Of a stretch of 64,000 nt of DNA, positions 30,912 to 51,449 are shown piece after piece. This stretch comes from Thermoplasmatota archaeon. Its GTDB lineage: Archaea; Thermoplasmatota; Thermoplasmata; Thermoplasmatales; GCA-001856825. The translations under genes were made by a program, and so were the position numbers. Below the pieces are notes generated by a model. The model saw only the letters and a program-made list of their open reading frames with translations. It had not been told where the DNA came from and searched no databases. Every line of letters begins with the position of its first letter. Within the stretch, counting starts at the first letter, position 1. The stretch spans positions 1 through 64,000 of the forward strand of contig JAMCUN010000032.1 in the NCBI GenBank assembly GCA_023381415.1, read 5' to 3'.

Positions 30912-32030
30912 CTATACAGCTGGTCTGCGTCCTATGGAGGTCAGATAGGTCAATGCGAAGAACCTGTATGCAAGGTGCGCAAATTTTGAGTATGGGAAAT
31001 AGGCAACTAGCATGAATACTAGAATGAGATGTATCATATAGGTCCAATAGGCCAAAGAAATGCCGTCCAGGCGGAGGAGTTCCATGACGAATCCTGTGCA
31101 CACTATCAGGAGGAGGAGAATGAGGAAGAACCAGTCGAAGTAGGTATCCTCTTTGGGGACCTTGCTCGTAGTCCTGTTGATTATGGCTATAAGTAGACCT
31201 GGCAATATCAGGACTGTTCCTATGTTCCCTATGATATTCTGGGGTTCCCCAAGCAAAGCGTGGGAGAATCCGAATACGTGAATCTCTAGTGCACCTGTAA
31301 ATGTTGCAAGGAGCAGGACGCAAAACCCGTAGAATATCAGGATGTGGGCATAGTACCTATTGCGGTTAGAACCGCATACGCTGAACCAGGTATGCAGGAT
31401 GACGTCCTTGAGGGTCAATATCGCAGCAATCACAGCGTTCATTTTACCCTTCTTCTGCTTGCTCAAAGTCCTGTAATACCTGAAACATCCGTAGAGGAGC
31501 GCGAGTATCGCATATGCCCCAACTATTATTCCTGCAGTATCCAGATAATTGTAAGGAACAAGGCTTGAGAAGTAGATTGGACCGCCATTTGGGACCCTGA
31601 TTCCTGTCGCCAGGAAGAACACAATCATGAGGACGACCGGGACGAGCGCAAATAAAGCAAGGAATGCTTTCTTTGAAAATGCCCTTGATATAGCTCTCGG
31701 CCATGAGTATGTTTCTATCACCATTGAACGAAGGGCACCAAGGACGCTCCCAGGTTTTGCATTTCTCGGGCATTCCTTTGAGCAGTCTTCACAGTTATGG
31801 CACATCCAAATGTCAGGGTCTGCCATTAGCTTGTCCTTCAACCCCCACTGAGTCCAGAGCATCTCCTTCCTCGGGAAAGGGGACTCAGATGGACTGAGCG
31901 GACAGACCACGGAGCATTCCGAGCATTGCATGCACTTCTTGACGTCTCCTCCTCCCCTTCTTGTAACTTCGTTCACGAAATTCAAGTCAACTTCTATCCT
32001 CTGCCTAGAAACTGGATTGGAGGTACTCAC
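30912..32030 (-). CDS. qmoC: QmoC, membrane subunit of quinone-interacting oxidoreductase
   Basis: Iron-sulfur and heme-type membrane subunit that takes electrons from quinol to the Apr/Qmo complex. The N-terminal HdrC-like part has two cubane sites, KCMQCSECSVVCP and MCHNCEDCSKECP. The C-terminal part has about six membrane segments with histidines, as in the NarI/HdrE-like domain. The frame is open to 32081 but a GTG at 32030, one base after the qmoB stop and after a GGGGG stretch, is the more likely start (372 aa). Last gene of aprBA-qmoABC. Confidence 0.92.
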   Translation of the reverse strand: MSTSNPVSRQRIEVDLNFVNEVTRRGGGDVKKCMQCSECSVVCPLSPSESPFPRKEMLWTQWGLKDKLMADPDIWMCHNCEDCSKECPRNAKPGSVLGALRSMVIETYSWPRAISRAFSKKAFLALFALVPVVLMIVFFLATGIRVPNGGPIYFSSLVPYNYLDTAGIIVGAYAILALLYGCFRYYRTLSKQKKGKMNAVIAAILTLKDVILHTWFSVCGSNRNRYYAHILIFYGFCVLLLATFTGALEIHVFGFSHALLGEPQNIIGNIGTVLILPGLLIAIINRTTSKVPKEDTYFDWFFLILLLLIVCTGFVMELLRLDGISLAYWTYMIHLILVFMLVAYFPYSKFAHLAYRFFALTYLTSIGRRPAV

Positions 32031-32031
32031 G

Positions 32032-34242
32032 TTAAAGCCCCCTGAATGGATTTGGCCCAAACTTCCTGACAGATTCAACAAAACCGTCTATTATGTTACC
32101 AACCTTGCTCCAGTCCGAAAGCTCTATCTGCTCAATCCTGAGCCTTTCAGGCTCAAGGGCCAGATTGTCAAGTGTCTCTTTGAGGGCTTTCAACCTCTGG
32201 CTCTCAAGTTCAGAACCCCTGACGAAGTGGCACTGATAATCGCTACCGTATTTGCATCCCAGGAACAGCAATCCGTCTATTCCCTCAGAGAGAGAATCAG
32301 CTACCAGGACGCTGTTTACTGACCCGAGGCACCTGACAGGTATTATCCTGACTTCCTCGCTGTACTTCATCCTCTCCCTGGAAGCGATGTCAAGTGCTGG
32401 ATATGCATCGTTTTCACAGGCGAAGACTACGATCCTCAACTTGTCATCTTCTTCTGGAATCTTTATTGATTTTATCATGCTGTGCAGGATGTCGACAGAA
32501 TATTGCTTGAATGAAATCGCCTGGACCGGGCAGGCGCCCATGCATATTCCGCAATCCCTGCATCTAAGAGGGTTGTAGAGGGGGAAGGTCTTAGCATCCT
32601 CATCGATTGCTCCAAAGGGGCACTCCTCAGTGCATCTCCTGCACTGTGTGCATCTTTGAAGTGAGATTGTGAGATGATCCTCCTCCCCAACCTTTGGTGG
32701 CCCTATTATCAATCCCCTATCTGCAAGCTCCACTGTCTGTATTGCCTTCAGTGCGGCACCCTTTGCGTCAATTTCACACGTTGCAACATTTGAGGGGGAC
32801 CTGGCAGTCCCTGCCGCGAATATACCCGTCCTTCTGGATTCATAGGGGAAGCATACGTAGTGTGAATCCGGGAACCCATCCATGAGCGTAGGCAACTCGG
32901 GGCCCTGTCTGTACCTCAAGTTAAGTATATGTTCCCCAGAGGTGGCAGTAGCACCATCAGAGAGTTTGTAGGGATTCAGGTGTGAATACGAGAGTGGTCC
33001 ATTTTCTGGATGCTCCTCCTTCACGTTGTACATTCCGAATTCAGAAGAAATCATCCCGGTTGCAAGTACAACCTTGTCCACCCTGATATCAGTTCCAAAA
33101 TCCAGGAAACCACCGTTTAATTTGAGTTCCATACCAGGCTCACCGTCATTCCACGAAATTTCATCAACGTCTGCCTTCGCAAGGAATATCCCACTGTCTT
33201 CCTGAGCCTTCTTGTAGAATTCCTCATAAACTCCCAGGGCCCTCATGTCCTTATAGAAGATGAATACCTTTGAGTCCCTCACTCTCTCCCTTATCTGGAG
33301 TGCTTCTTTCAGAGAAGCGGCACAACAAACGCTTGAACAGTAGGGGAGGTTCTGATCGTCTCTCTGCCCGGCACACAGCACAAATGCAAATGTCTTTTGA
33401 TTCGCAAAGGAGTTTCCGTCCTTCAGGAGTTTCTCCAGTTCGAGAGTTGTAATTATGTCAGGATTCAGCCCATACTTGTACTTCTTTATCTTGCTGGCGT
33501 CATACGGTTTCCATCCTGTGGCAACTATTATGGACCCCACCCTTATGATGGCCTCAGAACTTGGGCTCTTTATCTGGACATCAAACATTCCCGGTTGACC
33601 TGATATTGATCCAATTGAACTCGACAAGAATGTTTTGATCCTGCTATCCTCCTTGAGGCGTGCAATCCTTTCATTGATAAAGGAAGATGCGTCGACCGTA
33701 TCCCTGTACGGTGACTTGACGGGAAGAATCCTTCCATATTCCGCAACCTTTCCACCTAGCTTTCCCTCCTTCTCTACCAGGAACACGTTGTAGTTTGCCT
33801 TAGCTGCCTCTAGTGCGGCGGTTATGCCCGTTATCCCCCCTCCAATTACAAGAATGTCCTTTGAAATTTCTTCGTCTATCAAGGTTGCAAGAGATTTCCG
33901 CATGACGGAATTTATCCCCATCCTCAGGTAGTCTTCCGCCATACTCTGCATCGCCTCGTTTGATTGATGCGACCAAATGATTCCTTCCCTTAGGTTCACC
34001 CTCTCCAGTATGGAATCATTTTCTACGCTGAAATTGGCCTGTTTCTCCCTTGGGGAGCAGGCCGCAATGACGACGTTTCCGTGAACATTCCTTAGTAATT
34101 CGGGGCTGTTGCACAATTCGCTGGATATTGATACCTCCCCCTTGAACTCCCTTTCGGCTATCCCCTTCAGTTTCTCGATGTCTAGCTTCTTGCCTATATC
34201 GCACCCGCTGCATATCAGGACGTTTAGCTTCATTTCGTTCAT
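32032..34242 (-). CDS. qmoB: QmoB, HdrA/MvhD-like flavoprotein of the Qmo complex
   Basis: A 736-residue soluble flavin and iron-sulfur subunit. An N-terminal partial domain (to about 135) precedes the FAD-binding ILVIGGGITGITAALEAA. Two [4Fe-4S] sites follow: CTQCRRCTEECPFGAI and CRDCGICMGACPVQAI. The last 140 residues (FACENDAYPALD, RCLGSVNSVLV, GCKYGSDYQC) are MvhD-like, as in known QmoB. It overlaps qmoA by 4 bases. An ATG at 34233 is an alternative start. Confidence 0.93.
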   Translation of the reverse strand: MNEMKLNVLICSGCDIGKKLDIEKLKGIAEREFKGEVSISSELCNSPELLRNVHGNVVIAACSPREKQANFSVENDSILERVNLREGIIWSHQSNEAMQSMAEDYLRMGINSVMRKSLATLIDEEISKDILVIGGGITGITAALEAAKANYNVFLVEKEGKLGGKVAEYGRILPVKSPYRDTVDASSFINERIARLKEDSRIKTFLSSSIGSISGQPGMFDVQIKSPSSEAIIRVGSIIVATGWKPYDASKIKKYKYGLNPDIITTLELEKLLKDGNSFANQKTFAFVLCAGQRDDQNLPYCSSVCCAASLKEALQIRERVRDSKVFIFYKDMRALGVYEEFYKKAQEDSGIFLAKADVDEISWNDGEPGMELKLNGGFLDFGTDIRVDKVVLATGMISSEFGMYNVKEEHPENGPLSYSHLNPYKLSDGATATSGEHILNLRYRQGPELPTLMDGFPDSHYVCFPYESRRTGIFAAGTARSPSNVATCEIDAKGAALKAIQTVELADRGLIIGPPKVGEEDHLTISLQRCTQCRRCTEECPFGAIDEDAKTFPLYNPLRCRDCGICMGACPVQAISFKQYSVDILHSMIKSIKIPEEDDKLRIVVFACENDAYPALDIASRERMKYSEEVRIIPVRCLGSVNSVLVADSLSEGIDGLLFLGCKYGSDYQCHFVRGSELESQRLKALKETLDNLALEPERLRIEQIELSDWSKVGNIIDGFVESVRKFGPNPFRGL

Positions 34243-35483
34243 TTCCTCACTCCCGAATTCCGCAGTAGCTGTATTGCACTCAGGGTGGCCGCTTCCGCAT
34301 CCTGATTGGACTGGCTTACATCACCAACCTTGTGTGCGACCCCACACGAGAATAGGCCATCGTCGCTTACAAATCCATTTTCATCATATGAGACCCCTTT
34401 TATGCCACTGGCCACTGAACTTGGTTCCATTCCAGTCGCAAGAACTACAAACTCGACCTCCCTTCCAACCTTGGTTCCAGAAAGGGTATCCTCGGCCTGG
34501 ACCAGAAGATTATCGTTTCCGAGCTCATCTATCTTTGACACTTTTCCCCTGATAAATTCAACGCTACGGTCTGATTCAAGCCTTTTCAGGAAATGTTCGT
34601 ATATACCGTACGCCCTGAGGTCGATATAGAATATCTGTATCTTGATTTCTGGATACAGCGTTTTCAGATAGTTGGCCTGTTTGATGGTGGCAAGGCAGCA
34701 GACCTGGGAGCAATACTTCAGGTTGTTTTCGTCCCTTGAACCTGCGCATTGCACGAAAGCGACGCTCTTTGGTTCCTTTCCATCAGATCTCCTGACAATC
34801 CTGCCGCTGAAAGGCCCGTTAGGAGACGCTATTCGTTCCATCATCAGGTTAGTCACAACGTTCTTGAACTTCCCGAACCCAAGGTAATGGATTTTTTCAG
34901 CGTCGTATTGCTTCCATCCAGTCGATATTATTACTGCCCTGGCATCAATGGTAATGTTTTTCCCCTTTTCCGTCAGATCAATTGCCCCATAGGCACAGGC
35001 TTCTACGCATTTTGAGCATTCAACCCCTTTACAATTCCTTTGGTCTATCACGTATCTGTTGGGGAATGCATACTGGTGAGGGAGGTATATTGCCTTCGTC
35101 GTGTCCATGCCGAAGTTGAAGTCGTTCTCCCTTGATACATCGCAGGCTTCTACGCATTTTCCGCAGGAGGTGCATCTATCATTTACAAATCTCGGGCTGA
35201 GGGTTATCTCCGCAGTGTAGTCTGATCCGCCTTTGGAAACATTTTTGACTTCAGCCCCCGTATATATCGTAAGGTTTCTCAGATTCTTGGCTCTCCTGAG
35301 CAGTATTTCAAGCCCACATTGAGGAGGGCAGAGCTTCGGAAAATATTTGTAGAATTGGACAACCCTCCCGCCTAGGTAGAAGTTTTTCTCCACCAGCGTG
35401 ACGTTGTACCCTATTTCCGCTGCTTCCACTGCAGCAGTGATTCCTGCTATACCTCCTCCGACTACCAGTACATCTGTGTTCAA
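34239..35483 (-). CDS. qmoA: QmoA, HdrA-like flavoprotein of the Qmo complex
   Basis: A 414-residue HdrA-type subunit thought to bind electrons near AprBA. FAD loop VLVVGGGIAGITAAVEAA is at the N-terminus, then NFYLGGRVVQF and the cysteine-containing PKLCPPQCG. Two ferredoxin-like sites follow: CTSCGKCVEACDV and CKGVECSKCVEACAYGAI. The order qmoA-qmoB-qmoC directly after aprBA is that of sulfate reducers. Confidence 0.94.
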   Translation of the reverse strand: MNTDVLVVGGGIAGITAAVEAAEIGYNVTLVEKNFYLGGRVVQFYKYFPKLCPPQCGLEILLRRAKNLRNLTIYTGAEVKNVSKGGSDYTAEITLSPRFVNDRCTSCGKCVEACDVSRENDFNFGMDTTKAIYLPHQYAFPNRYVIDQRNCKGVECSKCVEACAYGAIDLTEKGKNITIDARAVIISTGWKQYDAEKIHYLGFGKFKNVVTNLMMERIASPNGPFSGRIVRRSDGKEPKSVAFVQCAGSRDENNLKYCSQVCCLATIKQANYLKTLYPEIKIQIFYIDLRAYGIYEHFLKRLESDRSVEFIRGKVSKIDELGNDNLLVQAEDTLSGTKVGREVEFVVLATGMEPSSVASGIKGVSYDENGFVSDDGLFSCGVAHKVGDVSQSNQDAEAATLSAIQLLRNSGVRK

Positions 35484-35517
35484 GTCGCTACATCCCTAAA
35501 AAAAGAAGGGGAAAGGA

Positions 35518-37461: not shown

Positions 37462-37464
37462 GCT

Positions 37465-37917
37465 TTACCTCACCTTCTTTCTAATTGTGAACCTTGCAGG
37501 GTCCTTGCATTCCCTTCCTCCTGCGTAGTCCTTTGATTTGAGTTTGTCTAGCGTTGGTGCTTCTATTCCGCCGAAAGGATCAATTGAATCCCAAGGGGTA
37601 GTCCTGATGGGGAACTTGAATCTCTGTACCTTCCCGTTCCTGAATTTTGCTGTCCACATTATGGAGTCTGTCCCTCTCTTTGGAGTAACCTTTGCACCAA
37701 GAGGAACAAAGTCCGCATATCCCCTTACTTCAATTGCATCCTTCGGGCATGTCTTAACGCACGAGTAACATTCCCAGCACTGATCTGGTTCTTGATTGTA
37801 CGCCTTCATTTTCACGCTGTCAAGAATCATTAGGTCGTTTGGGCAAATATATTGGCAAGCAGTTCTTGCAAGGGCTTTGCATCCATCACACTTGTTCGGA
37901 TCAACATAAGTCGGCAT
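37465..37917 (-). CDS. aprB: Adenylylsulfate (APS) reductase beta subunit
   Basis: Ferredoxin-like partner of AprA that passes electrons to its FAD. The two [4Fe-4S] sites are CDGCKALARTACQYICPNDL and CWECYSCVKTCPKDAI, matching known AprB. The C-terminal tail (RTTPWDSIDPFGG) is the segment that wraps AprA. At 150 aa it is of normal size. First gene of aprBA-qmoABC; the promoter carries the regulon palindrome and a leader of about 90 bases. Confidence 0.97.
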   Translation of the reverse strand: MPTYVDPNKCDGCKALARTACQYICPNDLMILDSVKMKAYNQEPDQCWECYSCVKTCPKDAIEVRGYADFVPLGAKVTPKRGTDSIMWTAKFRNGKVQRFKFPIRTTPWDSIDPFGGIEAPTLDKLKSKDYAGGRECKDPARFTIRKKVR

Positions 37918-38034
37918 TCTTAATACATCTCCGCAGCCTGACTGCCAGGTGCGCTCAAGTTATAATTCAGCCACCTCGTGATTAAACTCGAGTGTCGCCT
38001 GGGGAATCAGGTTACAACTGATTAGCTGTACACA

Positions 38035-38064
38035 ATATATGAATTTCAACCCTTACTCATAAGG
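38035..38064 (-). promoter_or_regulatory. aprB promoter: sulfur-regulon palindrome plus BRE/TATA
   Basis: The palindrome CCTTACTCATAAGG is at 38051-38064. Reading toward aprB it is followed at once by GTTGAAATTCATATATTG, with a BRE-like TGAAA and TATA-like TTCATATA (38035-38048). This is the clearest example of the shared layout palindrome-BRE-TATA. Confidence 0.8.
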
Positions 38065-38656: not shown

Positions 38657-38683
38657 CCTCATCCCTAAGGGTATGTTATTAAG
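38657..38683 (+). promoter_or_regulatory. sat promoter: sulfur-regulon palindrome plus TATA-like element
   Basis: CCTCATCCCTAAGG (38657-38670) keeps one full half-site and one mismatch in the other. It is followed by GTATGTTATTAAG, a likely TATA element, 60-70 bases before the sat ATG. Confidence 0.7.
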
Positions 38684-38745: not shown

Positions 38746-40017
38746 ATGATGACGAGTTATGTTGGTCACAACGGAAAAACAATAGTAGACAGGGTAGAGG
38801 CCGATGGAAGAGAAGGAAGGTTAGGCGGGATGCTTACCATTCCTGTGAGAAGAGAAATTGCCCACGAGATAATTAGCTTATCTTATGGCTTCTTCACTCC
38901 TCTCGAAGGCTTCATGAACCGAGAACAGGTGGAGAGTACGCTGAATGAGATGGAACTGCCGGATGGGACGCTCTGGAGTATTCCAATTGTTTTTGATCTT
39001 GCTCCAGAAAAGATATCCGAGTACGGACTGCGCTCTGGCGATGAGGTTCTGCTCGAATACGACGGTTCGCCGATCGCAAGGTTTTCGATGGATGATATCT
39101 TTGATTACAACACGGATGAAATGTCAGAAAAGACATACGGTACAAAAGACCTGAAGCATCCGGGAGTTAAAAGGACGCACTCATATCAAGGCAAATTTAT
39201 TGGGGGTAAAGTAACTCTGGTAAATGAGCCAAAATTCAATCCACCTTACGACAGGTTCTGGATGACGCCCAAGCAGCATATCGATGCGTTCAGAAAGAAG
39301 AAATGGAAACACATAGTTGCCCATCAGACGAGAAATGTTCCTCATACCGGCCACGAGGCGCTGATGAAACAGGCCTGGTTTGCAGCCAATGAGGATATGC
39401 CAGTTGACCAGATCAGAACAGGTATCCTGGTAAATGCAATCATAGGAGAGAAGAGGGTGGGGGATTACATCGACGAATCGATACTGCTAACACAGGATGC
39501 ACTGAGGCAGTATGGTTATTTCAGGGAGGACGTCCACATGGTCACTTTCACACTATGGGACATGAGATATGCCGGGCCGAGGGAAGCGATATTCCATGCA
39601 ATTCTCAGAACGAACCTAGGTTGCACTCACCACATGTTTGGCAGAGACCATGCAGGCGTTGGGAATTTCTACAGGCCATACGACGCACAGGACTTACTGA
39701 AGCAGTACAGGGAAAAACTGAGCATTAAACCTGTCTTCCTCATGGAAAACTGGTACTGCCCTGAGTGCGCGGAAGTGACGAATGCGTCCGTCTGCGGTCA
39801 TGAAAAGAAGGCTCAAAATTTCAGCGGAACATTGCTTAGGAGCATACTGACCGATGGTGTGAAGCCGACAAAGAAGGTCATGAGACCAGAAGTATTCGAT
39901 GTTGTGATGAAAAGTGCGTCAGATTATGGTGTTGGATCACCATTTGTCACGGAGAAGTACCTTGCATCTAGGAGGCCAATTTTCAATCTCAGAAAAATGG
40001 AGGTGCAGAAGGCATGA
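38746..40017 (+). CDS. sat: Sulfate adenylyltransferase (ATP sulfurylase)
   Basis: Activates sulfate with ATP to APS and PPi. The active-site HxxH region is VAHQTRNVPHTGHEALMK, followed by GRDHAGVGNFY. A zinc site CPECAEVTNASVCGH lies near residue 345. At 423 aa it is the homo-oligomeric dissimilatory type without an APS kinase domain. It is divergent from aprBA-qmoABC and carries its own copy of the palindrome. The ATG at 38746 is followed by a second ATG. Confidence 0.97.
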   Translation: MMTSYVGHNGKTIVDRVEADGREGRLGGMLTIPVRREIAHEIISLSYGFFTPLEGFMNREQVESTLNEMELPDGTLWSIPIVFDLAPEKISEYGLRSGDEVLLEYDGSPIARFSMDDIFDYNTDEMSEKTYGTKDLKHPGVKRTHSYQGKFIGGKVTLVNEPKFNPPYDRFWMTPKQHIDAFRKKKWKHIVAHQTRNVPHTGHEALMKQAWFAANEDMPVDQIRTGILVNAIIGEKRVGDYIDESILLTQDALRQYGYFREDVHMVTFTLWDMRYAGPREAIFHAILRTNLGCTHHMFGRDHAGVGNFYRPYDAQDLLKQYREKLSIKPVFLMENWYCPECAEVTNASVCGHEKKAQNFSGTLLRSILTDGVKPTKKVMRPEVFDVVMKSASDYGVGSPFVTEKYLASRRPIFNLRKMEVQKA

Positions 40018-40331
40018 CAGGAAAGGGAAACGTGAAAATCAATGTCTGGATCAACGAGGAACGCCTTGATGCTCTCAGGAAGGCGGGACTGGACAGGCTT
40101 GCGAAGGAAGAGTTCGCTGGAATGATGCTTCTGGAAGTCACCTGCACGGAAGAGCAGAAGGACAAGCTACTGGAACAGTACCCCACGGCCAAATACGACT
40201 CATCTACAACACATTCAATAGAGCTACTCCCGAGGGAAGTAAAGGATAAGATATTCGAAACATCCTTACAACTGCGCTCCACCGGTCCAGAGGTAATAGA
40301 AAATATGCTGTCCAGAGGTGGAGGTAAATAG
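40014..40331 (+). CDS. Small protein coupled to sat, unknown function
   Basis: A 105-residue soluble protein starting inside the sat stop codon (ATGA). It has an N-terminal strand-helix (KGNVKINVWINEERLDALRK), one cysteine (EVTCTEEQ) and a helical C-terminus. No motif is recognised. Tight coupling to sat suggests a role in sulfate activation or Sat stability, but that is inference from position only. A T-rich stretch (40375-40395) after it may terminate the unit. Confidence 0.75.
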   Translation: MTGKGNVKINVWINEERLDALRKAGLDRLAKEEFAGMMLLEVTCTEEQKDKLLEQYPTAKYDSSTTHSIELLPREVKDKIFETSLQLRSTGPEVIENMLSRGGGK

Positions 40332-40506: not shown

Positions 40507-40539
40507 CAGTTCCATTATAAGGAGTGGTAGGGGGACTCA

Positions 40540-43903: not shown

Positions 43904-43932
43904 CCTTACTGATAAGGTTTGTTCCTTAATAT
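43904..43932 (+). promoter_or_regulatory. yaaH promoter: sulfur-regulon palindrome identical to the dsrC site
   Basis: CCTTACTGATAAGG at 43904-43917. The 19 bases TTACCCTTACTGATAAGGT are identical to those before dsrC. A TATA-like TTCCTTAATATG follows, then a GGGGGT ribosome site before the ATG at 43972. Confidence 0.8.
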
Positions 43933-43971
43933 GATCAATGAGATTGAACACACATCAGGGGGTATAATCAA

Positions 43972-44637: not shown

Positions 44638-44682
44638 GCATAGACCAGGCTCAAAATGCCTGCAGCTATGCCTCTTTTTTTT
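44636..44682 (+). terminator. Hairpin plus T-run after yaaH
   Basis: An 8-bp inverted repeat AGGCATAG / CTATGCCT (44636-44643 and 44666-44673) is followed by eight T at 44675-44682. The T tract itself fits archaeal termination; the hairpin makes it look like a bacterial intrinsic terminator. Confidence 0.6.
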
Positions 44683-44796
44683 AATTCTCAATTTTTTCTC
44701 CCATTCACGTGTGACAGAAGGACGCTGTTTCTGAAGCTTAAACTCCGGATTACTTAAATGCGTTGCATTTGATGGAGCACGCAAATTTATCAGAAG

Positions 44797-45432
44797 TCAC
44801 TTGGCTAGTTTTGATGTGCTCTTATCCATGCCGTATTTGTAGGCTTTTTCATCTTTCCTATCTGATACAAGCTTCCAGAATATTTCGTCATTCAGAAGGA
44901 GGCTGAAGAACCTGGCTTTCTCCTTGGAACTCCCAAAGTTTACATCCTTTCTCAACCTTTGAATCACCGGAAGGCAGAGTGAGTACCTTACTGTCTGCTC
45001 CTTCAGCCTGTCCCTTATGAACCTTGCCAATGATGGCGATCTTCCGTCTGTGGAAACTGAGAGAGTGACCCCCCCGGAACTGAATGTCGCTGGAAAAATG
45101 AACGGACTGTCTGCTTCGTCCACGCTGTTAAAAAGTAACCCTTTCCTAGAACAGTAATCCCGGATTTCCCTGTTCATATTTCTGTCATCTGTTGCTATCA
45201 CTACTATTGAGTCCTTGTTCACAAATCCAGAAAGCTGTTCAGGATCAGTCAGCCTCATTTTGACCTTCCTTATGTCGGCGGATTCAAACTCGCTGTCAAA
45301 CTCTTCTGAAATAACTGTAACTTTCTGAAACTTGGGCTTCATGTTTTCGATTTTCTTTAAAGCAGCGGTGCCTCCTCCAATTACGACTAGATCTCTTGAG
45401 GAGACATTCAGCATGATTGGGATGAATTCCAT
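44797..45432 (-). CDS. Precorrin-2 dehydrogenase / siroheme synthase N-domain (CysG-N/Met8 type)
   Basis: Oxidises precorrin-2 to sirohydrochlorin with NAD, and in some members also inserts iron. NAD loop DLVVIGGGTAALKKIENMK is at the N-terminus, then VVIATDDRNMNREIRDYC and NSVDEADSPFIFPATFSSGGV, both family-typical. At 211 aa it is a normal stand-alone enzyme. Last gene of the dsr operon, overlapping SUMT by 25 bases; it would supply siroheme for DsrAB. Confidence 0.9.
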   Translation of the reverse strand: MEFIPIMLNVSSRDLVVIGGGTAALKKIENMKPKFQKVTVISEEFDSEFESADIRKVKMRLTDPEQLSGFVNKDSIVVIATDDRNMNREIRDYCSRKGLLFNSVDEADSPFIFPATFSSGGVTLSVSTDGRSPSLARFIRDRLKEQTVRYSLCLPVIQRLRKDVNFGSSKEKARFFSLLLNDEIFWKLVSDRKDEKAYKYGMDKSTSKLAK

Positions 45433-46373
45433 TGTTGCATCACCTTTTGCTGATACTCCAATTTCCCTATAACTTCATCCACATCTTTCAAGTCAACCGC
45501 TCCTTCCTGTGCTTTCCACGGAGTAGGGGAGACTATCTTCATGCCGACAATTGCTTCCACAACTTTTCCTATCACAATAATGCCAGGTGCAGATATCTTT
45601 TCTCTTTTTGCAACAGATGCTATGTTGGAGACTGTCCCGCAAATAATTCTCTGCCTCTTCTTTGTTCCGTCCTGAATTATGATTGTCCCCATTTCCGGGT
45701 CCATCCCCGCCTCTATCAAGTCTCTTGTAATTTCATCCAGCATCCCTATCCCCATCAGTATTACAAGAGTCCCCCCGAACCTGGCAATGTAGTTCCAGTC
45801 GTTCACTTCTTCCTTTCCAGAATCCTTCTTTCTGTGCCCAGAAATTATCATCAAGGACGAAGAATAGTCCCTGTGTGTGAGCGGGACGCATGCCGCTGTA
45901 GGTACAGATATAGCAGAGGTAAGACCCGGAACGATCTCAAACTCTATCCCTTCCTTTTTTAGAAATTCAACCTCCTCGCCTCCTCTTCCAAATATGAAGG
46001 GGTCTCCGCACTTCAGTCGGACCACATTCTTCCCTTCATTTGACAGATTCAGCATCAGTCTGTTTATTTCCCCTTGTTTTGAATCCGGCTCAACACCGTG
46101 ATCTGTCCCTACCATAACGGCTTCCCTCCCTTTTGGAATTAATTCAAGGATAGCTCTATCGACCAGTCTGTCGTATAGCACAACGTCAGCCTTCTCCAGA
46201 GTTCTAACAGCTTTAAGGGTCAGCAGTTCCGGGTCTCCAGGCCCGGCACCGACCAGGAACACCTTCCCTCTCTTCTTCTCATCCAAAGTCAGGTTGCATC
46301 CATTCCCTCTGTCCCGTCCTGCCTTCGTCTTTGAAGGGGAGACCGAACTGCTGCTATCAATTATGCGTGACAT
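45408..46373 (-). CDS. cobA: Uroporphyrinogen-III C-methyltransferase (SUMT)
   Basis: Makes precorrin-2 from uroporphyrinogen III with two SAM. Motifs: VFLVGAGPGDPELLTLKA, YDRLVD, RLKCGDPFIFGRGGEE, and VPGLTSAISVPTAACVPLTH. A 30-residue basic N-terminal extension precedes the catalytic domain; no other start is evident. It sits 9 bases after dsrK, tying siroheme supply to sulfite reductase synthesis. Confidence 0.94.
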   Translation of the reverse strand: MSRIIDSSSSVSPSKTKAGRDRGNGCNLTLDEKKRGKVFLVGAGPGDPELLTLKAVRTLEKADVVLYDRLVDRAILELIPKGREAVMVGTDHGVEPDSKQGEINRLMLNLSNEGKNVVRLKCGDPFIFGRGGEEVEFLKKEGIEFEIVPGLTSAISVPTAACVPLTHRDYSSSLMIISGHRKKDSGKEEVNDWNYIARFGGTLVILMGIGMLDEITRDLIEAGMDPEMGTIIIQDGTKKRQRIICGTVSNIASVAKREKISAPGIIVIGKVVEAIVGMKIVSPTPWKAQEGAVDLKDVDEVIGKLEYQQKVMQQWNSSQSC

Positions 46374-46382
46374 TCAATCCTC

Positions 46383-47768
46383 CTACAGCTCCATTGCATA
46401 TCCGACCAGATCCATTAGGCCGTGATTCTGCATCTTGACCTTGTGATAGTCCATGACGTATGGCATCTGCGCTTTGTCTATTGCGCACGGGGAAACCATG
46501 TGCTCCGCTCCAGTCCTCCAGGAGAAATAGACCGCGGGCCAGCCTGACCAGGCCCTGTACTCATTCCATTCCTTTTCGTCTGCGAGAAGTCCGCCACCTG
46601 CGCCGCAACAAAGAGTCTTTTCCCTGTTGTACTTCGCCTCTACAGTCTCCCTCACCACTGCCTTAAGGACGTCCCTCGGTTCGTTTACGAGGTTTCCTCC
46701 CCTGGCAAGGTTGCACGGGTCGTGATAATTGAAAAGATCATCGTTCTTGTTCCTGTCCACGTGAATCTGCTTCCTTTCTATTGCCTTAGCCGTGATCTGA
46801 TGTATGTGCCTTAGCTCGATCCCTCTCTTTGAAAGTTCGTAGCGTACATAATTGTTTGCGGTTCTCCACCCGTGTCCGCACTCCCCCCAGACTACCATTT
46901 TAACTCCTGTCTTTACAGCCTCACTCACAACCATGTCCCCGAAGTCCCTCAGATGCCTTTCACTCGCAAATGTTCCAAAGTTTGCTGCCTCCGTTGTGTT
47001 GGTTGAAATGGTCCATTCCTTCTTGAGGGTCTGAAGGACTTTGGCATAACCTTTCAGTGTGTCGTTGTTGACGAATATATCTGCGGAGGAAGGGATCATC
47101 AGCACATCAGCCTTTGGAAGATTCAAGGGAATTTCTATCTTTTTCCCCGACTCTGAGAGCATCTCATCCTCGACGAATGATACGACGTTCTTGATGAATT
47201 TCTCTTTAAGGCCCATGTTGTTCCCCGTCTTGTATACCTGTGTCATAGTTGCCGTGACGTATTCTGAAATAATCCCCATGTCTGTCAGAATGTTCCTTAT
47301 GTTCCTTGTTATCTCTGCCTGGTCTATACCGGCCGGGCAGAAAACAGAACATCTCCTGCATTCAGTGCATTGATAATAGTACGAGTACAGCTTGTTGAGA
47401 TCCACGTCTTTTGGAGTTGCGTCGTCGCAGATCTTGTAAAGTTTTCTCACCAGATTTGCCCGTCCCACTGGGCTGTTGTTGATGTCCCCGGTGGCTATGA
47501 ACATCTGGCATTTGTCTATGCATTCACCGCACCTGGTGCAGCTTTCCATGAATGTGACAAAAGCCCTGTTCTTTTTCAGATCCTTGAATCTCTCAAGGAA
47601 ATATGCCTCATCTCCTTTTTTATCTACCTTTATTCCTTCTAGCTGCTGGTCCTTTGCCCTCCTTTCAGCGGATGATACTGCCCATTCGATATCTTTCTGT
47701 TTTGACAGCCATTCTTCTGCCTTTCCACTGGGGGACTCGAGGATTATGTCTCTAATCTTTGGTTTCAT
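46383..47768 (-). CDS. dsrK: DsrK, HdrD-like catalytic subunit of DsrMK
   Basis: Cytoplasmic iron-sulfur subunit that reduces the DsrC trisulfide with membrane electrons. Two [4Fe-4S] sites are at cysteines 77/80/83/87 and 134/137/140/144. The non-cubane cluster region for disulfide chemistry has C297 (WGECGHGWR), C352 (HDPCNLARGG) and C387/C388 (LCCGAGGG). The frame opens at 47873, but the ATG at 47768 gives the normal start and overlaps dsrM by 17 bases (461 aa). Confidence 0.93.
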   Translation of the reverse strand: MKPKIRDIILESPSGKAEEWLSKQKDIEWAVSSAERRAKDQQLEGIKVDKKGDEAYFLERFKDLKKNRAFVTFMESCTRCGECIDKCQMFIATGDINNSPVGRANLVRKLYKICDDATPKDVDLNKLYSYYYQCTECRRCSVFCPAGIDQAEITRNIRNILTDMGIISEYVTATMTQVYKTGNNMGLKEKFIKNVVSFVEDEMLSESGKKIEIPLNLPKADVLMIPSSADIFVNNDTLKGYAKVLQTLKKEWTISTNTTEAANFGTFASERHLRDFGDMVVSEAVKTGVKMVVWGECGHGWRTANNYVRYELSKRGIELRHIHQITAKAIERKQIHVDRNKNDDLFNYHDPCNLARGGNLVNEPRDVLKAVVRETVEAKYNREKTLCCGAGGGLLADEKEWNEYRAWSGWPAVYFSWRTGAEHMVSPCAIDKAQMPYVMDYHKVKMQNHGLMDLVGYAMEL

Positions 47769-48510
47769 TTGCCTCACCCGGATGGAAAATGGAATACATG
47801 GTAGGGTTTGTAAGGAAGGAGTAGGGGTGCATGAATTTGCTACAGGGGAAGTATATGAGGAGAGTGCAGACAAGGAAGAAGTGTATTATGAACGGCCATT
47901 GAAAAGGTATGTTAATGGGGGAGAGGGTGAATATGGAATGGATGTATGGGGAGACTTGATTGTATGCAAATAGGGATGGGAGGGCCACCCTCATGTAAAT
48001 TCCGGATATCCCAATTGCAATTATGAGAAGAATCGAAAAGTAATCTGCAGTGCTACTTATCCTCCTGACATACTTGTCTGTGATCCTTCTGAGCAGGAGA
48101 AGGAATCCTGCTGCCACCATGATCACAGCAAGGCTGGTCCCAAGGTACGTCCCTATCATTTCCATTGTCTGCTCACTTATGCCAATAGAGGCAAAGTATG
48201 GCATCAGAACCAAGTCTGCATGAGCTGCTATGACTATCCAGAGTGACCAGTGGAACGTCATAGTGACAGTCCTGAGGTAAGGATCATCCTTCAAGCTTGA
48301 GAATAGAAATATTCTCTTTAGCATGTTTTTGAATGCACTTGCCCTGCTAGTGTTTCCAGGGAAGGTCAGGAGGTATGGGTATCCAAGGTATGTGCCGGAA
48401 GTCCCCTTAGGTAGAAATATCCACCTGGCTATGACTATTATGCTCCCGATTACGAAAATGAGACCCGCTGCGCATGCGTATGACAGTATCAACCAGGAAA
48501 AGAGTGTCAT
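47752..48510 (-). CDS. dsrM: DsrM, membrane cytochrome b-type subunit of DsrMK
   Basis: A NarI/HdrE-like membrane protein with about five hydrophobic segments and histidines in FHWSLWIVIAAHAD and FIIHFFLVCTLLIYFP that could bind heme b. It passes electrons from quinol to DsrK. At 252 aa it is shorter than many bacterial DsrM. It is followed by dsrK; no dsrJ, dsrO or dsrP gene lies in the window. Confidence 0.9.
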   Translation of the reverse strand: MTLFSWLILSYACAAGLIFVIGSIIVIARWIFLPKGTSGTYLGYPYLLTFPGNTSRASAFKNMLKRIFLFSSLKDDPYLRTVTMTFHWSLWIVIAAHADLVLMPYFASIGISEQTMEMIGTYLGTSLAVIMVAAGFLLLLRRITDKYVRRISSTADYFSILLIIAIGISGIYMRVALPSLFAYNQVSPYIHSIFTLSPINIPFQWPFIIHFFLVCTLLIYFPCSKFMHPYSFLTNPTMYSIFHPGEANETKD

Positions 48511-48545
48511 ATAGGACCACTTCTCAAGTTATCCTCGAAAGTAGC

Positions 48546-49604
48546 CTACCTAGTTCCTCCGTCCCTAAGGGTCATCATTCCTCTTACGTCCAGGTATTCC
48601 ATGCTCTGACCGTAGAACGGAAGCCCAGTCTTCTCATAGAAGCTTTCCCACCCTATCCTGTCTACCCAGTCTGCAATCCTTTCGCCTTTCCTAGCATCCT
48701 TCTTCCACGTTTCTATTATCCTTGTTACCACGGCCACAGTTTTCTTGTAATATGGAGGCTCATTTGGGAGATAAGGAACGACCACCCTTCCAAGGGTAGT
48801 TCCTACCCTAGACGGTACCGCCTTACCCCCTATTGAGATCGCATGTCCATCTGTCTTCTCCGGAGTCTCGAATATTATTCCTCCGCACGCTCCTACACAA
48901 AGTCCGCAACCTATGCATAGGTTCGCCCTTATCTCTAGCGTCCTTGATCCGTCAGGTAGTTGCTTCAGCTGAATGGCTCCAACTGGGCACGTATAAGCTG
49001 TACCCTGGAGATCACATTTCGAAACTTCTGGAGTCACTATCGGGATCTCGGTATGAATACCGCTTATGGATATATCCGTCAAGAAGCTGTTTCCACAGGA
49101 ACTGGGACACCCTGAGGATGATATCGTCAGCTTAGCAGGCAGCTCCTCTTTGTTGAAGTACTTTCCAAGGTTGTTTGCAAGGTTCTGAAGTATGGAGGGA
49201 GCATCTGTAGCTGCAAGCGCGCAGTGGAAATACCCGGCGCAGGACGTCATGTTCCAGAGGTGTCCATCCCATCCTCCAATCGGGAACCCGAGGTCCTCCA
49301 TTTCCGTCTTAAGACTTATGGCATCGTTTAGGTCCTTGGTCACGAACTCCATGTTTATTCCTCCGGTAAACCTCATGCTTGCACCTGCGTACTTCCTAGC
49401 TATAGCAGAGATTTTCCTCATTGTCTCAGTGCTGTACCTTCCATTTGGAGTTGAGGCAACTCTGACCGTGTAAATTTTGTTTCCTGATGTATCCAGATGC
49501 TCTATTATCCCCGGCTCGAGAACTTTATGAGTCTTCCATTTTCCGACGGATTCTTTAAGGTAAGGGGGAATAAAGTTCGTGTAAGGTCTTGCTGGTCCCT
49601 CCAT
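48546..49604 (-). CDS. dsrB: Dissimilatory sulfite reductase beta subunit
   Basis: Siroheme [4Fe-4S] subunit of DsrAB. The coupled cluster ligands are C122-x5-C128 (TSCAGYFHC) and C166-x3-C170 (SGCPSSC). A ferredoxin insert has C206 and C230/C233/C236/C240 (CIGCGLCVGAC). Length 352 aa is typical. It is 3 bases after dsrA. Confidence 0.97.
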   Translation of the reverse strand: MEGPARPYTNFIPPYLKESVGKWKTHKVLEPGIIEHLDTSGNKIYTVRVASTPNGRYSTETMRKISAIARKYAGASMRFTGGINMEFVTKDLNDAISLKTEMEDLGFPIGGWDGHLWNMTSCAGYFHCALAATDAPSILQNLANNLGKYFNKEELPAKLTISSSGCPSSCGNSFLTDISISGIHTEIPIVTPEVSKCDLQGTAYTCPVGAIQLKQLPDGSRTLEIRANLCIGCGLCVGACGGIIFETPEKTDGHAISIGGKAVPSRVGTTLGRVVVPYLPNEPPYYKKTVAVVTRIIETWKKDARKGERIADWVDRIGWESFYEKTGLPFYGQSMEYLDVRGMMTLRDGGTR

Positions 49605-49607
49605 TGT

Positions 49608-50795
49608 TCATTCACCTCCAACTGCTTTCTTTATCTCTTCTGGCATTCTTTCCCTCTCCTCTCCATTGACCGAATAGAAGATATTTGTCCTGAGGTCTTT
49701 CGCATTATGTGCCTGAGGTTTTGTTTTCATAAGGTCAAGGAAATTCTTCATTCCTATCCTGAACATCAGGTCGCCCATCCTCTCTTTCCTCGCCGCCTGT
49801 TCCCCGTAGATATCTACCATAGTACCTATCAAGTTCATCGCCTCTTCTATCGAGTTAACTTTGGTAAACAGTTTTCCGGAAAGGGGTCCTTTCTTGCCCC
49901 TTAGCTTTCCGCCTGCATATATCAGGTACTGCTTTTCCCTCCCCTGAGATATCGCGCCTCCGCTATTCCTCACACATATCATGCACTGAGTGCAGTCCTC
50001 CCCCTTTATGGAAATCCCGGAGCCGTGTCTTGATATTGCTCCGGTTGGGCAGCTTCTGATTATGTTGTCCAACTTTTCCGAGTCCATCTTTGAGATGAGG
50101 GATTGATTTACCTCAGGAGCTCCCTTCCAGGAACCGACAATCCCTATGTCAGCCTTCTGCGTCGCCCTGCCACAGTCAATTGGGCAGCCTGAGACCTTAA
50201 CCTTCACCTTGTGCGGGAAAGTGGGGAACTTTGCAAAATCGTTGTATTTGTCATAAAAAGAGTCCCTGAACTCGGCCGTATTCAGGTTGGAGTATTCGCA
50301 TAGTAGGCTTCCTACGCAGGTTGTCACGGCCCTGAATGCGTCACCTGTCGAGCCACACTCGAACCCTCTCTGTCTCAGTTCTGTAATGAAGTCCCTTATC
50401 TTTTCCTTCGGAATACCCGGTATCTCAACGTCCTCTCCTGTGCTGATGCCGTGAATCATTCCCACCCCGTATTTGTCGGCAAGTTCACAGAGGGTATCCA
50501 GCATATCAGATGTGAGGAAGTTGCCTGAAGGTATCAGGACCCTAACAATGTTAGCGTTCTCTCCAATATCTGGTCTGCTTGTGACCCTCATCAGTATCCC
50601 TGTCGGTGCTCCGGGGACAGAAACATACCCGCCGGTTGTGAAGAGATCTCTCTTCAGGGCCAGCGACGCTCCATAGAGGTCAACTGGATAGCGGGTCTTT
50701 TCTGCTTCCCTCACAAAATTTGGCCAGTCTCCTTTTTTGAGTTCGTTCAATATCTTTCTTCCTTGAATAACCTCTTCCGGGACTTCTGACATCAT
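49608..50795 (-). CDS. dsrA: Dissimilatory sulfite reductase alpha subunit
   Basis: Partner of DsrB in sulfite reduction. Ligands C160-x5-C166 (TTCVGSLLC) and C204-x3-C208 (SGCPIDC) bind the siroheme-cluster pair. The ferredoxin insert has C249 (SCPTGAIS) and C268/C271/C274 (DCTQCMIC). The basic start of the C-terminal part (GGKLRGKKGPLSG) and RMGDLMFRIG are family-typical. It overlaps the zinc-ribbon gene by 4 bases (ATGA). Confidence 0.97.
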   Translation of the reverse strand: MMSEVPEEVIQGRKILNELKKGDWPNFVREAEKTRYPVDLYGASLALKRDLFTTGGYVSVPGAPTGILMRVTSRPDIGENANIVRVLIPSGNFLTSDMLDTLCELADKYGVGMIHGISTGEDVEIPGIPKEKIRDFITELRQRGFECGSTGDAFRAVTTCVGSLLCEYSNLNTAEFRDSFYDKYNDFAKFPTFPHKVKVKVSGCPIDCGRATQKADIGIVGSWKGAPEVNQSLISKMDSEKLDNIIRSCPTGAISRHGSGISIKGEDCTQCMICVRNSGGAISQGREKQYLIYAGGKLRGKKGPLSGKLFTKVNSIEEAMNLIGTMVDIYGEQAARKERMGDLMFRIGMKNFLDLMKTKPQAHNAKDLRTNIFYSVNGEERERMPEEIKKAVGGE

Positions 50796-51100
50796 TTACC
50801 ACCTCTGAACTCCTGCAGTGCGTACGACGTTCCTACGGCATACCCCTTTGTTCTAAGGTATCCGATGAATTTCTCCGTTTCTGACTCGTTTGGCTTCACC
50901 CTCAAAATGGGGATTTTCTCATCAGGTTCCTGTATTTTTTCACACTTTGCTATCGTGTTTATGCAGTTTGGGCAGATTTGGTCTCTCGTTAGCAAGTACT
51001 TCATCCTCTTAGATCTAACGGGATCTGTTGCCTCCTCCTCTTTGAATATGTCTATGGAATAGCCGCATATCGGGCATATCAGGTAAATCAAGTTACACAC
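50792..51100 (-). CDS. Zinc-ribbon protein between dsrC and dsrA, unknown
   Basis: A small protein of about 102 residues. It has two cysteine pairs, ICPICGYS and ICPNCIN, that would form a zinc ribbon or rubredoxin-like site, then a C-terminal FIGYLRTKGYAVGTSYALQEF. The open frame extends to 51232, but that part lies within dsrC; the GTG at 51100 or TTG at 51091 are likely starts. I do not recognise it as DsrD, DsrN or any named Dsr protein. Its overlap with both dsrC and dsrA says it belongs to the sulfite reductase system. Confidence 0.75.
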   Translation of the reverse strand: MCNLIYLICPICGYSIDIFKEEEATDPVRSKRMKYLLTRDQICPNCINTIAKCEKIQEPDEKIPILRVKPNESETEKFIGYLRTKGYAVGTSYALQEFRGGK

Positions 51101-51440
51101 ACCCCGTGGGTTTTGGAGCGCCGGCCATCCTGCAAGCACCTTTAGCTGGTCCAGTGGGGAATAAGCTGTATATGGTTTTAAGATCAAAGCCAGTCTCCTT
51201 CGTAAGCATCCTGATTGGCGGACAACTGTCAAAATTCAAGTAATAGTTCCGAAGATAGTTAATGACCTTCCAGTGGTCGTCAGTCAGTTTTGCGACTCCT
51301 TCGTCAGCAGATATCGCATTCACGAATTCGGGGCACCAGTCAGATGGATTTAGGAGAAATCCTTCTTCATCTATTCCTATATCCTTCTCAGCCCCATCCT
51401 TGGTCTTAACGTGAACACGCCTTTCAGTAGCGTCTCCCAT
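51093..51440 (-). CDS. dsrC: DsrC, sulfur-carrier substrate of DsrAB
   Basis: A 115-residue protein carrying both redox cysteines on its C-terminal arm: ACRMAGAPKPTGCV, with cysteines 11 residues apart and one penultimate. This pair marks true DsrC, which forms the trisulfide with DsrAB and is recycled by DsrMK. The ATG at 51440 has an AGGTGATC ribosome site. A GTG at 51449 would suit a leaderless start. First gene of dsrC-dsrA-dsrB-dsrM-dsrK-siroheme operon. Confidence 0.95.
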   Translation of the reverse strand: MGDATERRVHVKTKDGAEKDIGIDEEGFLLNPSDWCPEFVNAISADEGVAKLTDDHWKVINYLRNYYLNFDSCPPIRMLTKETGFDLKTIYSLFPTGPAKGACRMAGAPKPTGCV

Positions 51441-51449
51441 ATAGATCAC

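What the first reader, a model, noticed from the sequence alone, without database searches (positions are those of the whole stretch)
30912..51449. Complete dissimilatory sulfate reduction set in a Thermoplasmata-like genome
sat, aprBA, qmoABC, dsrAB, dsrC and dsrMK all lie within 21 kb with intact cluster and active-site residues: both DsrC arm cysteines, the siroheme ligands of DsrA and DsrB, and the AprB ferredoxin sites. Cultured Thermoplasmatales, as far as I know, are not sulfate reducers; Archaeoglobus and some Thermoproteota are the classical archaeal cases. The set of Sat, Apr, Qmo and DsrMK without DsrEFH or DsrL points to the reductive direction. Surrounding core genes look Thermoplasmata-like, so this would be a different lineage gaining or keeping the trait.
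Basis: partly seen in the sequence, partly recalled or inferred. Interest (0 to 1): 0.93.

Follow-up and report, generated by a model that had tools for sequence, protein, structure and literature searches.

The report
Mosaic sulfate-respiration genes in Thermoplasmatales
This stretch of DNA from an uncultured archaeon, very likely of the order Thermoplasmatales, encodes every core enzyme for breathing sulfate; gene trees indicate that the sulfate-to-sulfite half was likely acquired from an Archaeoglobus-like archaeon while the sulfite-to-sulfide half is of the archaeon's own lineage type, so the organism is predicted to respire sulfate.

Summary
Confirmed: window 30912-51449 holds intact qmoCBA, aprAB, sat, dsrKM, dsrBA and dsrC, plus siroheme genes. 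Sequence evidence speaks against a chimera: genes tested on either side are closest to congeners, and G113, a genome of a sister family, carries the same set on one 94-kb contig. DsrAB falls in a Thermoplasmatota clade, not with proteobacterial (oxidative-type) rows (p-AU 8e-110).

New here: the set is a mosaic. AprA nests inside Archaeoglobus beside A. profundus and QmoAB groups with Archaeoglobaceae, whereas DsrAB and Sat are of Thermoplasmatales type. QmoB reached E 1e-60 in 2 of 117 genomes of the order. So an AprBA-QmoABC module was probably transferred onto a resident Dsr system. dsrAB in Thermoplasmatota is in print (PMC7174415, PMC12948486), and PMC11094006 conjectures sulfate reduction by Thermoplasmatales; my searches found no report of this mosaic.

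Side finding: a ~99-aa four-cysteine protein between dsrC and dsrA is fused to DsrA in Rokubacteria. Reductive direction is inferred: oxidase genes and one DsrE-family gene leave a reversible pathway possible.

The parts
30912..32081 (-). qmoC (heme-b membrane subunit with 4Fe-4S dicluster); true start probably downstream of the TTG
   Evidence: NF038018 365 bits, cut-off 300
32032..34242 (-). qmoB (HdrA-like flavoprotein with C-terminal MvhD/FlpD domain)
   Evidence: PF02662 128 bits; 62% to G113, 55% to Archaeoglobaceae L080; QmoAB tree
34239..35483 (-). qmoA (HdrA-like flavoprotein)
   Evidence: HdrA-family hits; 63% to G113, 58% to Archaeoglobaceae L080
35518..37461 (-). aprA, APS reductase alpha, Archaeoglobus-type
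   Evidence: TIGR02061 1004 bits; 74% to A. profundus; nested in Archaeoglobus
37465..37917 (-). aprB, APS reductase beta, eight ferredoxin cysteines
   Evidence: TIGR02060 215 bits, PF12139
38746..40017 (+). sat, sulfate adenylyltransferase, Thermoplasmatales-type
   Evidence: NF003166 480 bits; 75% to G180; quick tree
40014..40331 (+). DUF6955 protein, follows sat here and in relatives
   Evidence: PF22271 109 bits; beside sat in G113, G180, G142, G315 and Desulfofundulus L089
40540..41397 (+). TauE/SafE-family transporter, possible sulfur-oxyanion transporter
   Evidence: PF01925 151 bits
41399..41803 (+). DUF1634 membrane protein, beside TauE also in G142 and G315
   Evidence: PF07843
43972..44637 (+). 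acetate uptake transporter family; neighbour of the dsr genes in relatives
   Evidence: NF038013, PF01184; syntenic in G180, G142, G315
44797..45432 (-). precorrin-2 dehydrogenase/siroheme synthase N-terminal type
   Evidence: TIGR01470 83 bits, cut-off 62
45408..46373 (-). uroporphyrinogen-III C-methyltransferase (siroheme)
   Evidence: TIGR01469 287 bits, cut-off 185
46383..47768 (-). dsrK, CCG-type DsrC-trisulfide reductase subunit
   Evidence: NF045796 317 bits (below 400), CCG PF02754; start codon context
47752..48510 (-). dsrM, NarI-like heme-b membrane subunit
   Evidence: NF038037 78 bits (below 300), PF02665
48546..49604 (-). dsrB, CX5C-CX3C siroheme ligands
   Evidence: TIGR02066 318 bits, 3mm5_B 1.8e-65
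49608..50795 (-). dsrA, CX5C-CX3C siroheme ligands
   Evidence: TIGR02064 259 bits, 3mm5_A 3.7e-46, tree
50792..51091 (-). ~99-aa four-cysteine (CX2C...CX2C) protein, candidate DsrA accessory, TTG start
   Evidence: present in the 6 loci held of this DsrAB clade, fused to DsrA in P0056 and Rokubacteria L160; no Pfam family
51093..51449 (-). dsrC with both C-terminal arm cysteines
   Evidence: TIGR03342 116 bits, 1ji8 and 2v4j_C alignments
51799..52173 (+). single DsrE-family protein with conserved cysteine
   Evidence: PF02635 58 bits; homologs beside dsr genes in G313, G221, G354, G333
52289..52906 (-). HTH_10 regulator candidate
   Evidence: PF04967; homologs near dsr or apr-sat genes in relatives
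27749..29872 (-). membrane pyrophosphatase near qmoC (host gene that could pull Sat by removing PPi)
   Evidence: TIGR01104 773 bits; follows host kinship
29847..30308 (-). adenylate kinase-like ORF (P-loop lies upstream in frame without a standard start codon)
   Evidence: NF003122 174 bits; frame reading

Best explanation
The 20.5-kb stretch encodes a complete Sat, AprBA, QmoABC, DsrABC and DsrMK set that is predicted to run in the reductive direction and so would give this archaeon, very likely of the order Thermoplasmatales, dissimilatory sulfate respiration. The set is a mosaic: the AprBA-QmoABC module likely came by horizontal transfer from an Archaeoglobus profundus-like donor, while DsrAB and Sat are of the Thermoplasmatales type. 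Predicted working: Sat turns sulfate and ATP into APS and PPi, with PPi removed by the nearby membrane pyrophosphatase; AprBA reduces APS to sulfite with electrons that QmoABC takes from menaquinol; DsrAB reduces sulfite and loads the sulfur on the two cysteines of DsrC; DsrMK would reduce the DsrC trisulfide with menaquinol and release sulfide; CobA and the CysG-type protein make siroheme. Shown by calls: gene content, intact frames and ligands, tree positions, host placement. Inferred: direction of transfer, direction of catalysis, electron route, quinone type.
For: Family hits and intact frames. Residues. Host: membrane pyrophosphatase left of the set 87-89% to four congeners, then 79% same family, 73% G113; M1 peptidase right of it 67-68% to four congeners, 52% same family. 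Same set in G113, a different family of the order, on one contig. AprA at 100% (rounded) in protein records P0072 and P0073 on 6 contigs each, longest 112 and 72 kb (these include the window's own and may be copies of one assembly), and 84-87% relatives P0075-P0078. AprA: window and G113 inside Archaeoglobus, sister to A. profundus (100/99), that group with the A. fulgidus group (97/96), A. veneficus group outside. Of 20 AprA rows from the 19 of 389 phylum genomes with AprA over the cut-off, only these two are there; one clade of all 20 rejected, p-AU 7e-6 (5e-68 with 11 rows); Archaeoglobus-type rows without the Thermoplasmata rows as one clade rejected, p-AU 0.012. QmoAB: window and G113 with Archaeoglobaceae L080, 100/100. 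DsrAB: window in a 6-row Thermoplasmatota clade (100/100), Archaeoglobaceae on the bacterial side; with seven proteobacterial rows as one clade rejected, p-AU 8e-110. Sat: with G180, G142, G315 and G113 (SH-aLRT 94), Archaeoglobus in another group (quick tree). QmoB at E 1e-60 or better in 2 of 117 genomes of the order.
Against: No expression or activity data. The genome encodes a heme-copper oxidase subunit I and cytochrome bd-type subunits; G113 has no hit for the former but has the latter. A DsrE-family gene with its cysteine sits beside dsrC. No NiFe hydrogenase hit in 6 of 6 genomes searched, so the electron donor is unknown. The p-AU of 0.012 for nesting was run on a group chosen after seeing the tree and includes unnamed protein records; only one Archaeoglobaceae QmoAB was available, so the direction of transfer was not tested for Qmo. 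In the QmoAB tree the bootstrap had not settled and the window branch is long (0.58). The gene order aprB-aprA-qmoABC is also found in bacteria, so order alone does not point to Archaeoglobus. The MAG is 81% complete and has a second pyrophosphatase fragment, 86% to the window's, at the end of contig C31: a paralog or a stray congener contig. Absences outside the window are soft.
Confidence: 0.75

Rival explanations
1. The same set runs in the oxidative direction, or both ways, oxidising sulfide or sulfur to sulfate with oxygen, as proposed for cable bacteria that carry reductive-type DsrAB.
For: Oxidase genes in the genome; DsrE-family gene beside dsrC; reductive-type DsrAB in sulfur oxidisers with a DsrEFH type II complex, which in archaea appears with dsrMK or qmoAB genes and escapes standard models (PMC13293266, passages).
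Against: DsrAB apart from the proteobacterial rows; no DsrF, DsrH or DsrL-like hit among the cluster ORFs scanned; the AprBA-QmoABC donor type is Archaeoglobus, a reducer; archaeal Dsr is described as solely reductive (PMC10591310, passages).
Confidence: 0.15
2. The organism disproportionates sulfite or thiosulfate or reduces only sulfite, with Sat, Apr and Qmo used to make ATP from sulfite.
For: Known disproportionators carry much the same gene set (recalled); an enrichment with relatives from this phylum made sulfide from sulfite but not sulfate (PMC7174415, passages).
Against: Those sulfite-only relatives lack Sat and Apr; here an AprBA-QmoABC module of a sulfate reducer's type is present.
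Confidence: 0.07
3. The pathway was inherited whole within Thermoplasmatota and lost in most members, with no transfer from Archaeoglobus.
For: DsrAB and Sat are shared by G113, G142, G180 and G315.
Against: AprA of window and G113 is apart from the other 18 Thermoplasmatota AprA rows tested (p-AU 7e-6) and nested in Archaeoglobus.
Confidence: 0.04
4. The contig is a chimera or the sulfur genes are misbinned.
For: No read coverage was available to check; a second pyrophosphatase fragment lies in the same bin.
Against: Congener-like genes on both flanks; same set on one contig of G113; even G+C, 0.43-0.50 in 2-kb windows.
Confidence: 0.02

Closest known systems
Archaeoglobus (A. profundus, A. 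fulgidus) sulfate reduction
   Same: AprA and QmoAB of the same clade; gene order aprB-aprA-qmoA-qmoB-qmoC as in Archaeoglobaceae L080, an order that bacteria share
   Different: Archaeoglobaceae DsrAB rows are on the bacterial side; Sat of L080 and L081 is ~42% identical and in another group; Archaeoglobus is described with DsrD and the DsrMKJOP set (PMC10504309, passages), neither detected in this cluster
Sulfite-reducing Diaforarchaea YNP-TEG (PMC7174415)
   Same: Same phylum-level group, DsrABC and DsrMK
   Different: They lack Sat and AprAB (passages); the window has Sat, AprBA and QmoABC
Other members of the order with close dsrAB (G142, G180, G315)
   Same: Same DsrAB clade, small ORF, DsrMK, CobA, CysG and acetate transporter neighbours, same Sat type
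   Different: AprA of another type (52-54% identity) and no QmoB at E 1e-60
Vulcanisaeta moutnovskia, sulfate use by acquired Qmo (as described in PMC10504309)
   Same: An archaeal sulfite reducer that gained QmoABC laterally
   Different: There the donor is described as bacterial and the Qmo as type II (passages); here the module groups with Archaeoglobus
Thermoplasmata of acidic springs (PMC11094006)
   Same: Thermoplasmata linked to dissimilatory sulfate reduction from metagenomes; the authors conjecture that Thermoplasmatales reduce sulfate to supply ARK-15 with sulfite
   Different: The most abundant ARK-15 MAG lacks aprAB; no Qmo or transfer is described in the passages seen
Thermoplasmatales MAG EUR_06 of an acidic pit lake (PMC9326234)
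   Same: aprAB and dsrAB in a Thermoplasmatales MAG

Membership tests
Canonical Dsr-pathway sulfate reducer | Sat | tested here: met
   NF003166 480 bits
Canonical Dsr-pathway sulfate reducer | AprAB with conserved residues and clusters | tested here: met
   residue list recalled
Canonical Dsr-pathway sulfate reducer | QmoABC next to aprBA, type I | tested here: met
   QmoC over cut-off; QmoAB with Archaeoglobaceae L080, a genus PMC10504309 puts in type I; type II references were not in the tree
Canonical Dsr-pathway sulfate reducer | DsrAB with siroheme-4Fe4S ligands | tested here: met
Canonical Dsr-pathway sulfate reducer | DsrC with two C-terminal cysteines | tested here: met
Canonical Dsr-pathway sulfate reducer | DsrMK (minimal membrane complex) | tested here: met
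   scores below NCBIfam cut-offs, placed by operon and CCG domain
Canonical Dsr-pathway sulfate reducer | Sulfate-dependent sulfide production | not testable with these tools
   needs culture or isotope work
Archaeal reductive-type DsrAB | Outside the oxidative and bacterial reductive clades | tested here: met
   which published RA-DsrAB clade (1 or 5 of PMC12948486) was not tested
Oxidative (reverse) Dsr system | Oxidative-type DsrAB | tested here: not met
   p-AU 8e-110 against a clade with seven proteobacterial rows, taken as oxidative type by their taxonomy
Oxidative (reverse) Dsr system | DsrEFH trio or DsrL | tested here: inconclusive
   only one DsrE-family gene among the cluster ORFs scanned; the divergent DsrEFH type II would escape these models; rest of genome not searched
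DsrD-containing bacterial-type system | DsrD gene | tested here: not met
   no DsrD hit among the cluster ORFs scanned with Pfam; rest of genome not searched

The most novel reading that the evidence does not exclude
Thermoplasmatales sulfate respiration was built by bolting an Archaeoglobus AprBA-QmoABC electron-input module onto a resident archaeal Dsr system, and that Dsr system uses an undescribed third component: a small four-cysteine protein that is a free subunit beside DsrA here and a DsrA N-terminal domain in Rokubacteria, a candidate counterpart of the activator DsrD.
Probability: 0.35. Interest if true: 0.78.

Novelty: new variant of a known kind. Interest (0 to 1): 0.62.

Why it matters
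Work on early sulfur metabolism treats Thermoplasmatota (Diaforarchaea) as lineages that reduce sulfite but not sulfate. Here genomes of two families of one order carry the whole sulfate pathway, and the trees suggest how: the step that lets sulfate in (AprBA-QmoABC) looks transferred between archaeal lineages onto an existing Dsr system. That makes the modular model of pathway assembly directly testable within one order, where near relatives G142, G180 and G315 have the same Sat and Dsr, another AprAB and no Qmo found. It also names a candidate for sulfide production in acidic settings where Thermoplasmata abound, if the activity is shown.

Tried and rejected
Chimera: unlikely by flanking genes and G113. 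Simple insertion with an empty site in congeners: not shown; in G313 the two flank genes lie about 144 kb apart on one contig, in G327, G329 and G370 on different contigs. Oxidative-type DsrAB: rejected. One clade of the ten Thermoplasmatota DsrAB rows: rejected (p-AU 4e-46); congener G313 carries the other lineage. Adenylate kinase beside qmoC as proof of a sulfate-activation operon: dropped, the ORF lacks a standard start upstream of its P-loop and no match to it lies in the 1.5 kb or less held beside the pyrophosphatase of 12 relatives. Structure of the small protein: model weak (pLDDT 69.5), fold search had nothing under E 0.001; the fused P0056 model has a confident first 60 residues (block means 77-91), but its search returned only sulfite and nitrite reductase chains under E 0.001, so no fold is claimed. 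Rows dropped or chosen before trees: one search used 55 of 92 AprA rows; one search used 32 of 92 and left out L079; one search was added to include AprA of all 19 genomes over the cut-off; one search left out L190-L192 and L213; one search left out eight Thermoproteota-phylum rows as near-duplicates or long; G341 has a DsrA that was not put in the DsrAB trees; one search used 29 of 53 QmoAB rows; one search used 45 rows chosen; L259 is a DsrA fragment.

Full report
What is there. The set from qmoC (30912) to dsrC (51449) is real and intact. NCBIfam and Pfam name QmoC, AprA, AprB, Sat, the two siroheme enzymes, DsrA, DsrB, DsrC, DsrK and DsrM; QmoA and QmoB hit HdrA-family models and, for QmoB, an MvhD-type C-terminus, and are named by position and by the tree. 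The twelve frames checked end in one stop with none inside. DsrA, DsrB, DsrK and DsrM score below curated cut-offs, as divergent archaeal forms would. Cluster and active-site cysteines are in place: DsrC arm, DsrA and DsrB siroheme ligands, AprB ferredoxin sites. DsrB here has CX5C and CX3C; of the 50 DsrB rows, 25 have the first of these cysteines (Thermoplasmatota, most Thermoproteota-phylum rows, L161 and Rokubacteria) and 25 have threonine (the other bacteria, Archaeoglobaceae and two Thermoproteota-phylum rows).

Host. G000 (1.42 Mb, 81% complete, 0.23% contamination) is in the same order as G180. A G180 contig of 87,722 bases has the length of the contig that holds P0029, named Thermoplasmataceae archaeon, so the order is inferred to be Thermoplasmatales. 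The membrane pyrophosphatase left of the set is 87-89% identical to four congeners, 79% to the same family and 73% to G113; the M1 peptidase right of it is 67-68% to the four congeners, 52% to the same family and 33% or lower beyond. A second pyrophosphatase fragment (86%) ends contig C31 of the same bin. MCM and a Kae1-type protein were seen by Pfam but not treed. G113, of another family, has qmoB, qmoA, aprA, aprB, DUF6955, sat, qmoC, dsrC, the small ORF, dsrA, dsrB, dsrM and dsrK within about 15 kb of one 94-kb contig. AprA records at 100% (rounded) to the window lie on 6 and 6 contigs (P0072, P0073), the window's own included and possibly copies of one assembly. A chimera is very unlikely, though reads were not available.

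How common. In 389 Thermoplasmatota genomes drawn, AprA passes the TIGR02061 cut-off in 19 and DsrA matches at E under 1e-50 in 11; 10 have both. In the order, QmoB reached E 1e-60 in 2 of 117 genomes, G000 and G113; G142, G180, G315 and G313 have AprA and DsrA but are not among the QmoB matches. Congeners G327, G329 and G370 have neither AprA over the cut-off nor a DsrA match. The trait is thus patchy inside one genus.

Origin of the parts. DsrAB: a careful tree of 50 rows puts the window with G180, G142, G315, G101 and G113 (100/100), apart from a second Thermoplasmatota lineage (G313, G221, G354, G333), from Thermoproteota-phylum rows and from bacteria; holding the window clade with seven proteobacterial rows, taken as the oxidative type, is rejected (p-AU 8e-110), as is one clade of the ten Thermoplasmatota rows (4e-46). 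Sat: the window groups with G180, G142, G315 (98) and G113 (94), and Archaeoglobaceae Sat is in another group (quick tree, SH-aLRT only). AprA: the window, G113 and P0075-P0078 form a clade sister to A. profundus, L080 and P0080 (100/99), inside Archaeoglobus with the A. fulgidus group next (97/96) and the A. veneficus group outside. With 20 AprA rows from the 19 genomes over the cut-off, the other 18 rows (17 measured there, 49-54% identical to the window) stand in a separate clade with a Thaumarchaeota row; one clade of all 20 is rejected (p-AU 7e-6; 5e-68 with 11 rows). Archaeoglobus-type rows without the Thermoplasmata rows are rejected at 0.012, a test chosen after the tree was seen. QmoAB: window and G113 with Archaeoglobaceae L080 at 100/100 (bootstrap not fully settled). 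L080 has the same order aprB-aprA-qmoA-qmoB-qmoC, but so do bacterial loci. The simplest account is transfer of an AprBA-QmoABC block from an A. profundus-like lineage.

How it would work. Sat, AprBA with QmoABC, DsrAB with DsrC, and DsrMK form the textbook chain from sulfate to sulfide; the membrane pyrophosphatase 1 kb from qmoC could pull the Sat reaction. Only gene content and phylogeny are shown; direction, electron route and energy yield are inferred. No NiFe hydrogenase was found in 6 of 6 genomes searched. The genome has a heme-copper oxidase subunit I and cytochrome bd-type subunits; G113, 96% complete, has hits only for the latter. So the organism is probably facultative, and an oxidative or reversible use stays open at about 15%.

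The small four-cysteine protein. Between dsrC and dsrA lies a ~99-aa protein with CX2C...CX2C and a block KR..YL.TRDQ.CPNC that is invariant in 14 aligned free proteins (three predicted proteins start late and lack the first cysteine). It is present in the six loci held of this DsrAB clade; a profile of it matches the N-terminus of DsrA in P0056 (E 2e-21, itself a row of the profile) and in both Rokubacteria DsrA copies of L160 (1e-13 and 8e-13), which were not in the profile; it was not found beside Thermoproteota-phylum or G313-type DsrA among the loci held. It has no Pfam family (best sub-threshold hit Zn_ribbon_3). In the tree Rokubacteria sits at the base of the bacterial side, next to the window clade across the midpoint root. 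Fusion plus fixed neighbourhood suggest a DsrA accessory; function is untested.

DsrE-family gene. The gene at 51799-52173 keeps one cysteine in the five aligned copies (C84) and has homologs beside the other type of dsr cluster in G313, G221, G354 and G333.

Literature. Seen as search listings and passages only: PMC7174415 (Diaforarchaea reduce sulfite, lack Sat and Apr), PMC12948486 (archaeal-type DsrAB clades in Thermoplasmatota), PMC10591310 (Thermoplasmatota among four archaeal phyla with the Dsr pathway), PMC10504309 (modular assembly, two Qmo types, Archaeoglobus DsrAB replaced), PMC11094006 (most abundant ARK-15 MAG lacks aprAB; Thermoplasmata linked to sulfate reduction in acidic springs, with a conjecture that Thermoplasmatales reduce sulfate), PMC9326234 (a Thermoplasmatales MAG with aprAB and dsrAB), PMC13293266 (DsrEFH type II); also PMC9287336 and PMC8357290, which added nothing on this point. 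Searches in an open-access library showed no report of an Archaeoglobus-type AprBA-QmoABC block in Thermoplasmatota or of the DsrA-linked small protein; closed papers, preprints and supplements were not seen.

Noticed in passing
window 50792-51091 (-); L160 32-1474 and 2533-3975; P0056: Conserved ~99-aa four-cysteine protein between dsrC and dsrA, fused to the DsrA N-terminus in Rokubacteria and in P0056; no Pfam family.
   Followed up: partly
window 51799-52173 (+); L070 14482-14844; L072 9532-9882; L073 10018-10386; L077 606-950: A lone DsrE-family gene with a conserved cysteine lies beside both types of Thermoplasmatota dsr cluster.
   Followed up: partly
window 27749-30308 (-): Membrane pyrophosphatase and an adenylate kinase-like ORF lie next to qmoC on the same strand; both by-products (PPi, AMP) of sulfate activation could be handled there. 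The kinase has its P-loop in frame but no standard start codon before it.
   Followed up: partly
window 40014-40331 (+): DUF6955 protein follows sat here, in four relatives and in Desulfofundulus (L089): a candidate Sat partner of unknown function.
   Followed up: no
L063, L065, L071 (also L067, L074-L076, L078): Other Thermoplasmatota carry a second AprAB type with no obvious electron partner beside it in the three loci read (L065, L063, L071); what reduces it is unknown.
   Followed up: partly
G313 (L070, L071): A congener of the window genome carries the other DsrAB lineage and the other AprAB type, so sulfur genes turn over within one genus.
   Followed up: partly
window 52289-52906 (-): HTH_10 regulator with homologs near dsr genes or apr-sat genes in G142, G180, G315, G221 and G054: a candidate shared regulator.
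   Followed up: no
window 56120-63750: Heme biosynthesis genes (hemH, hemE, hemL, hemA) lie right of the sulfur genes; hemE and hemH also adjoin the M1 peptidase in three of four congeners and in G386.
   Followed up: no
G000 contig C31, 2-622 (L233): A second membrane pyrophosphatase fragment, 86% to the window's, at a contig end of the same bin: paralog or stray contig of a congener.
   Followed up: no
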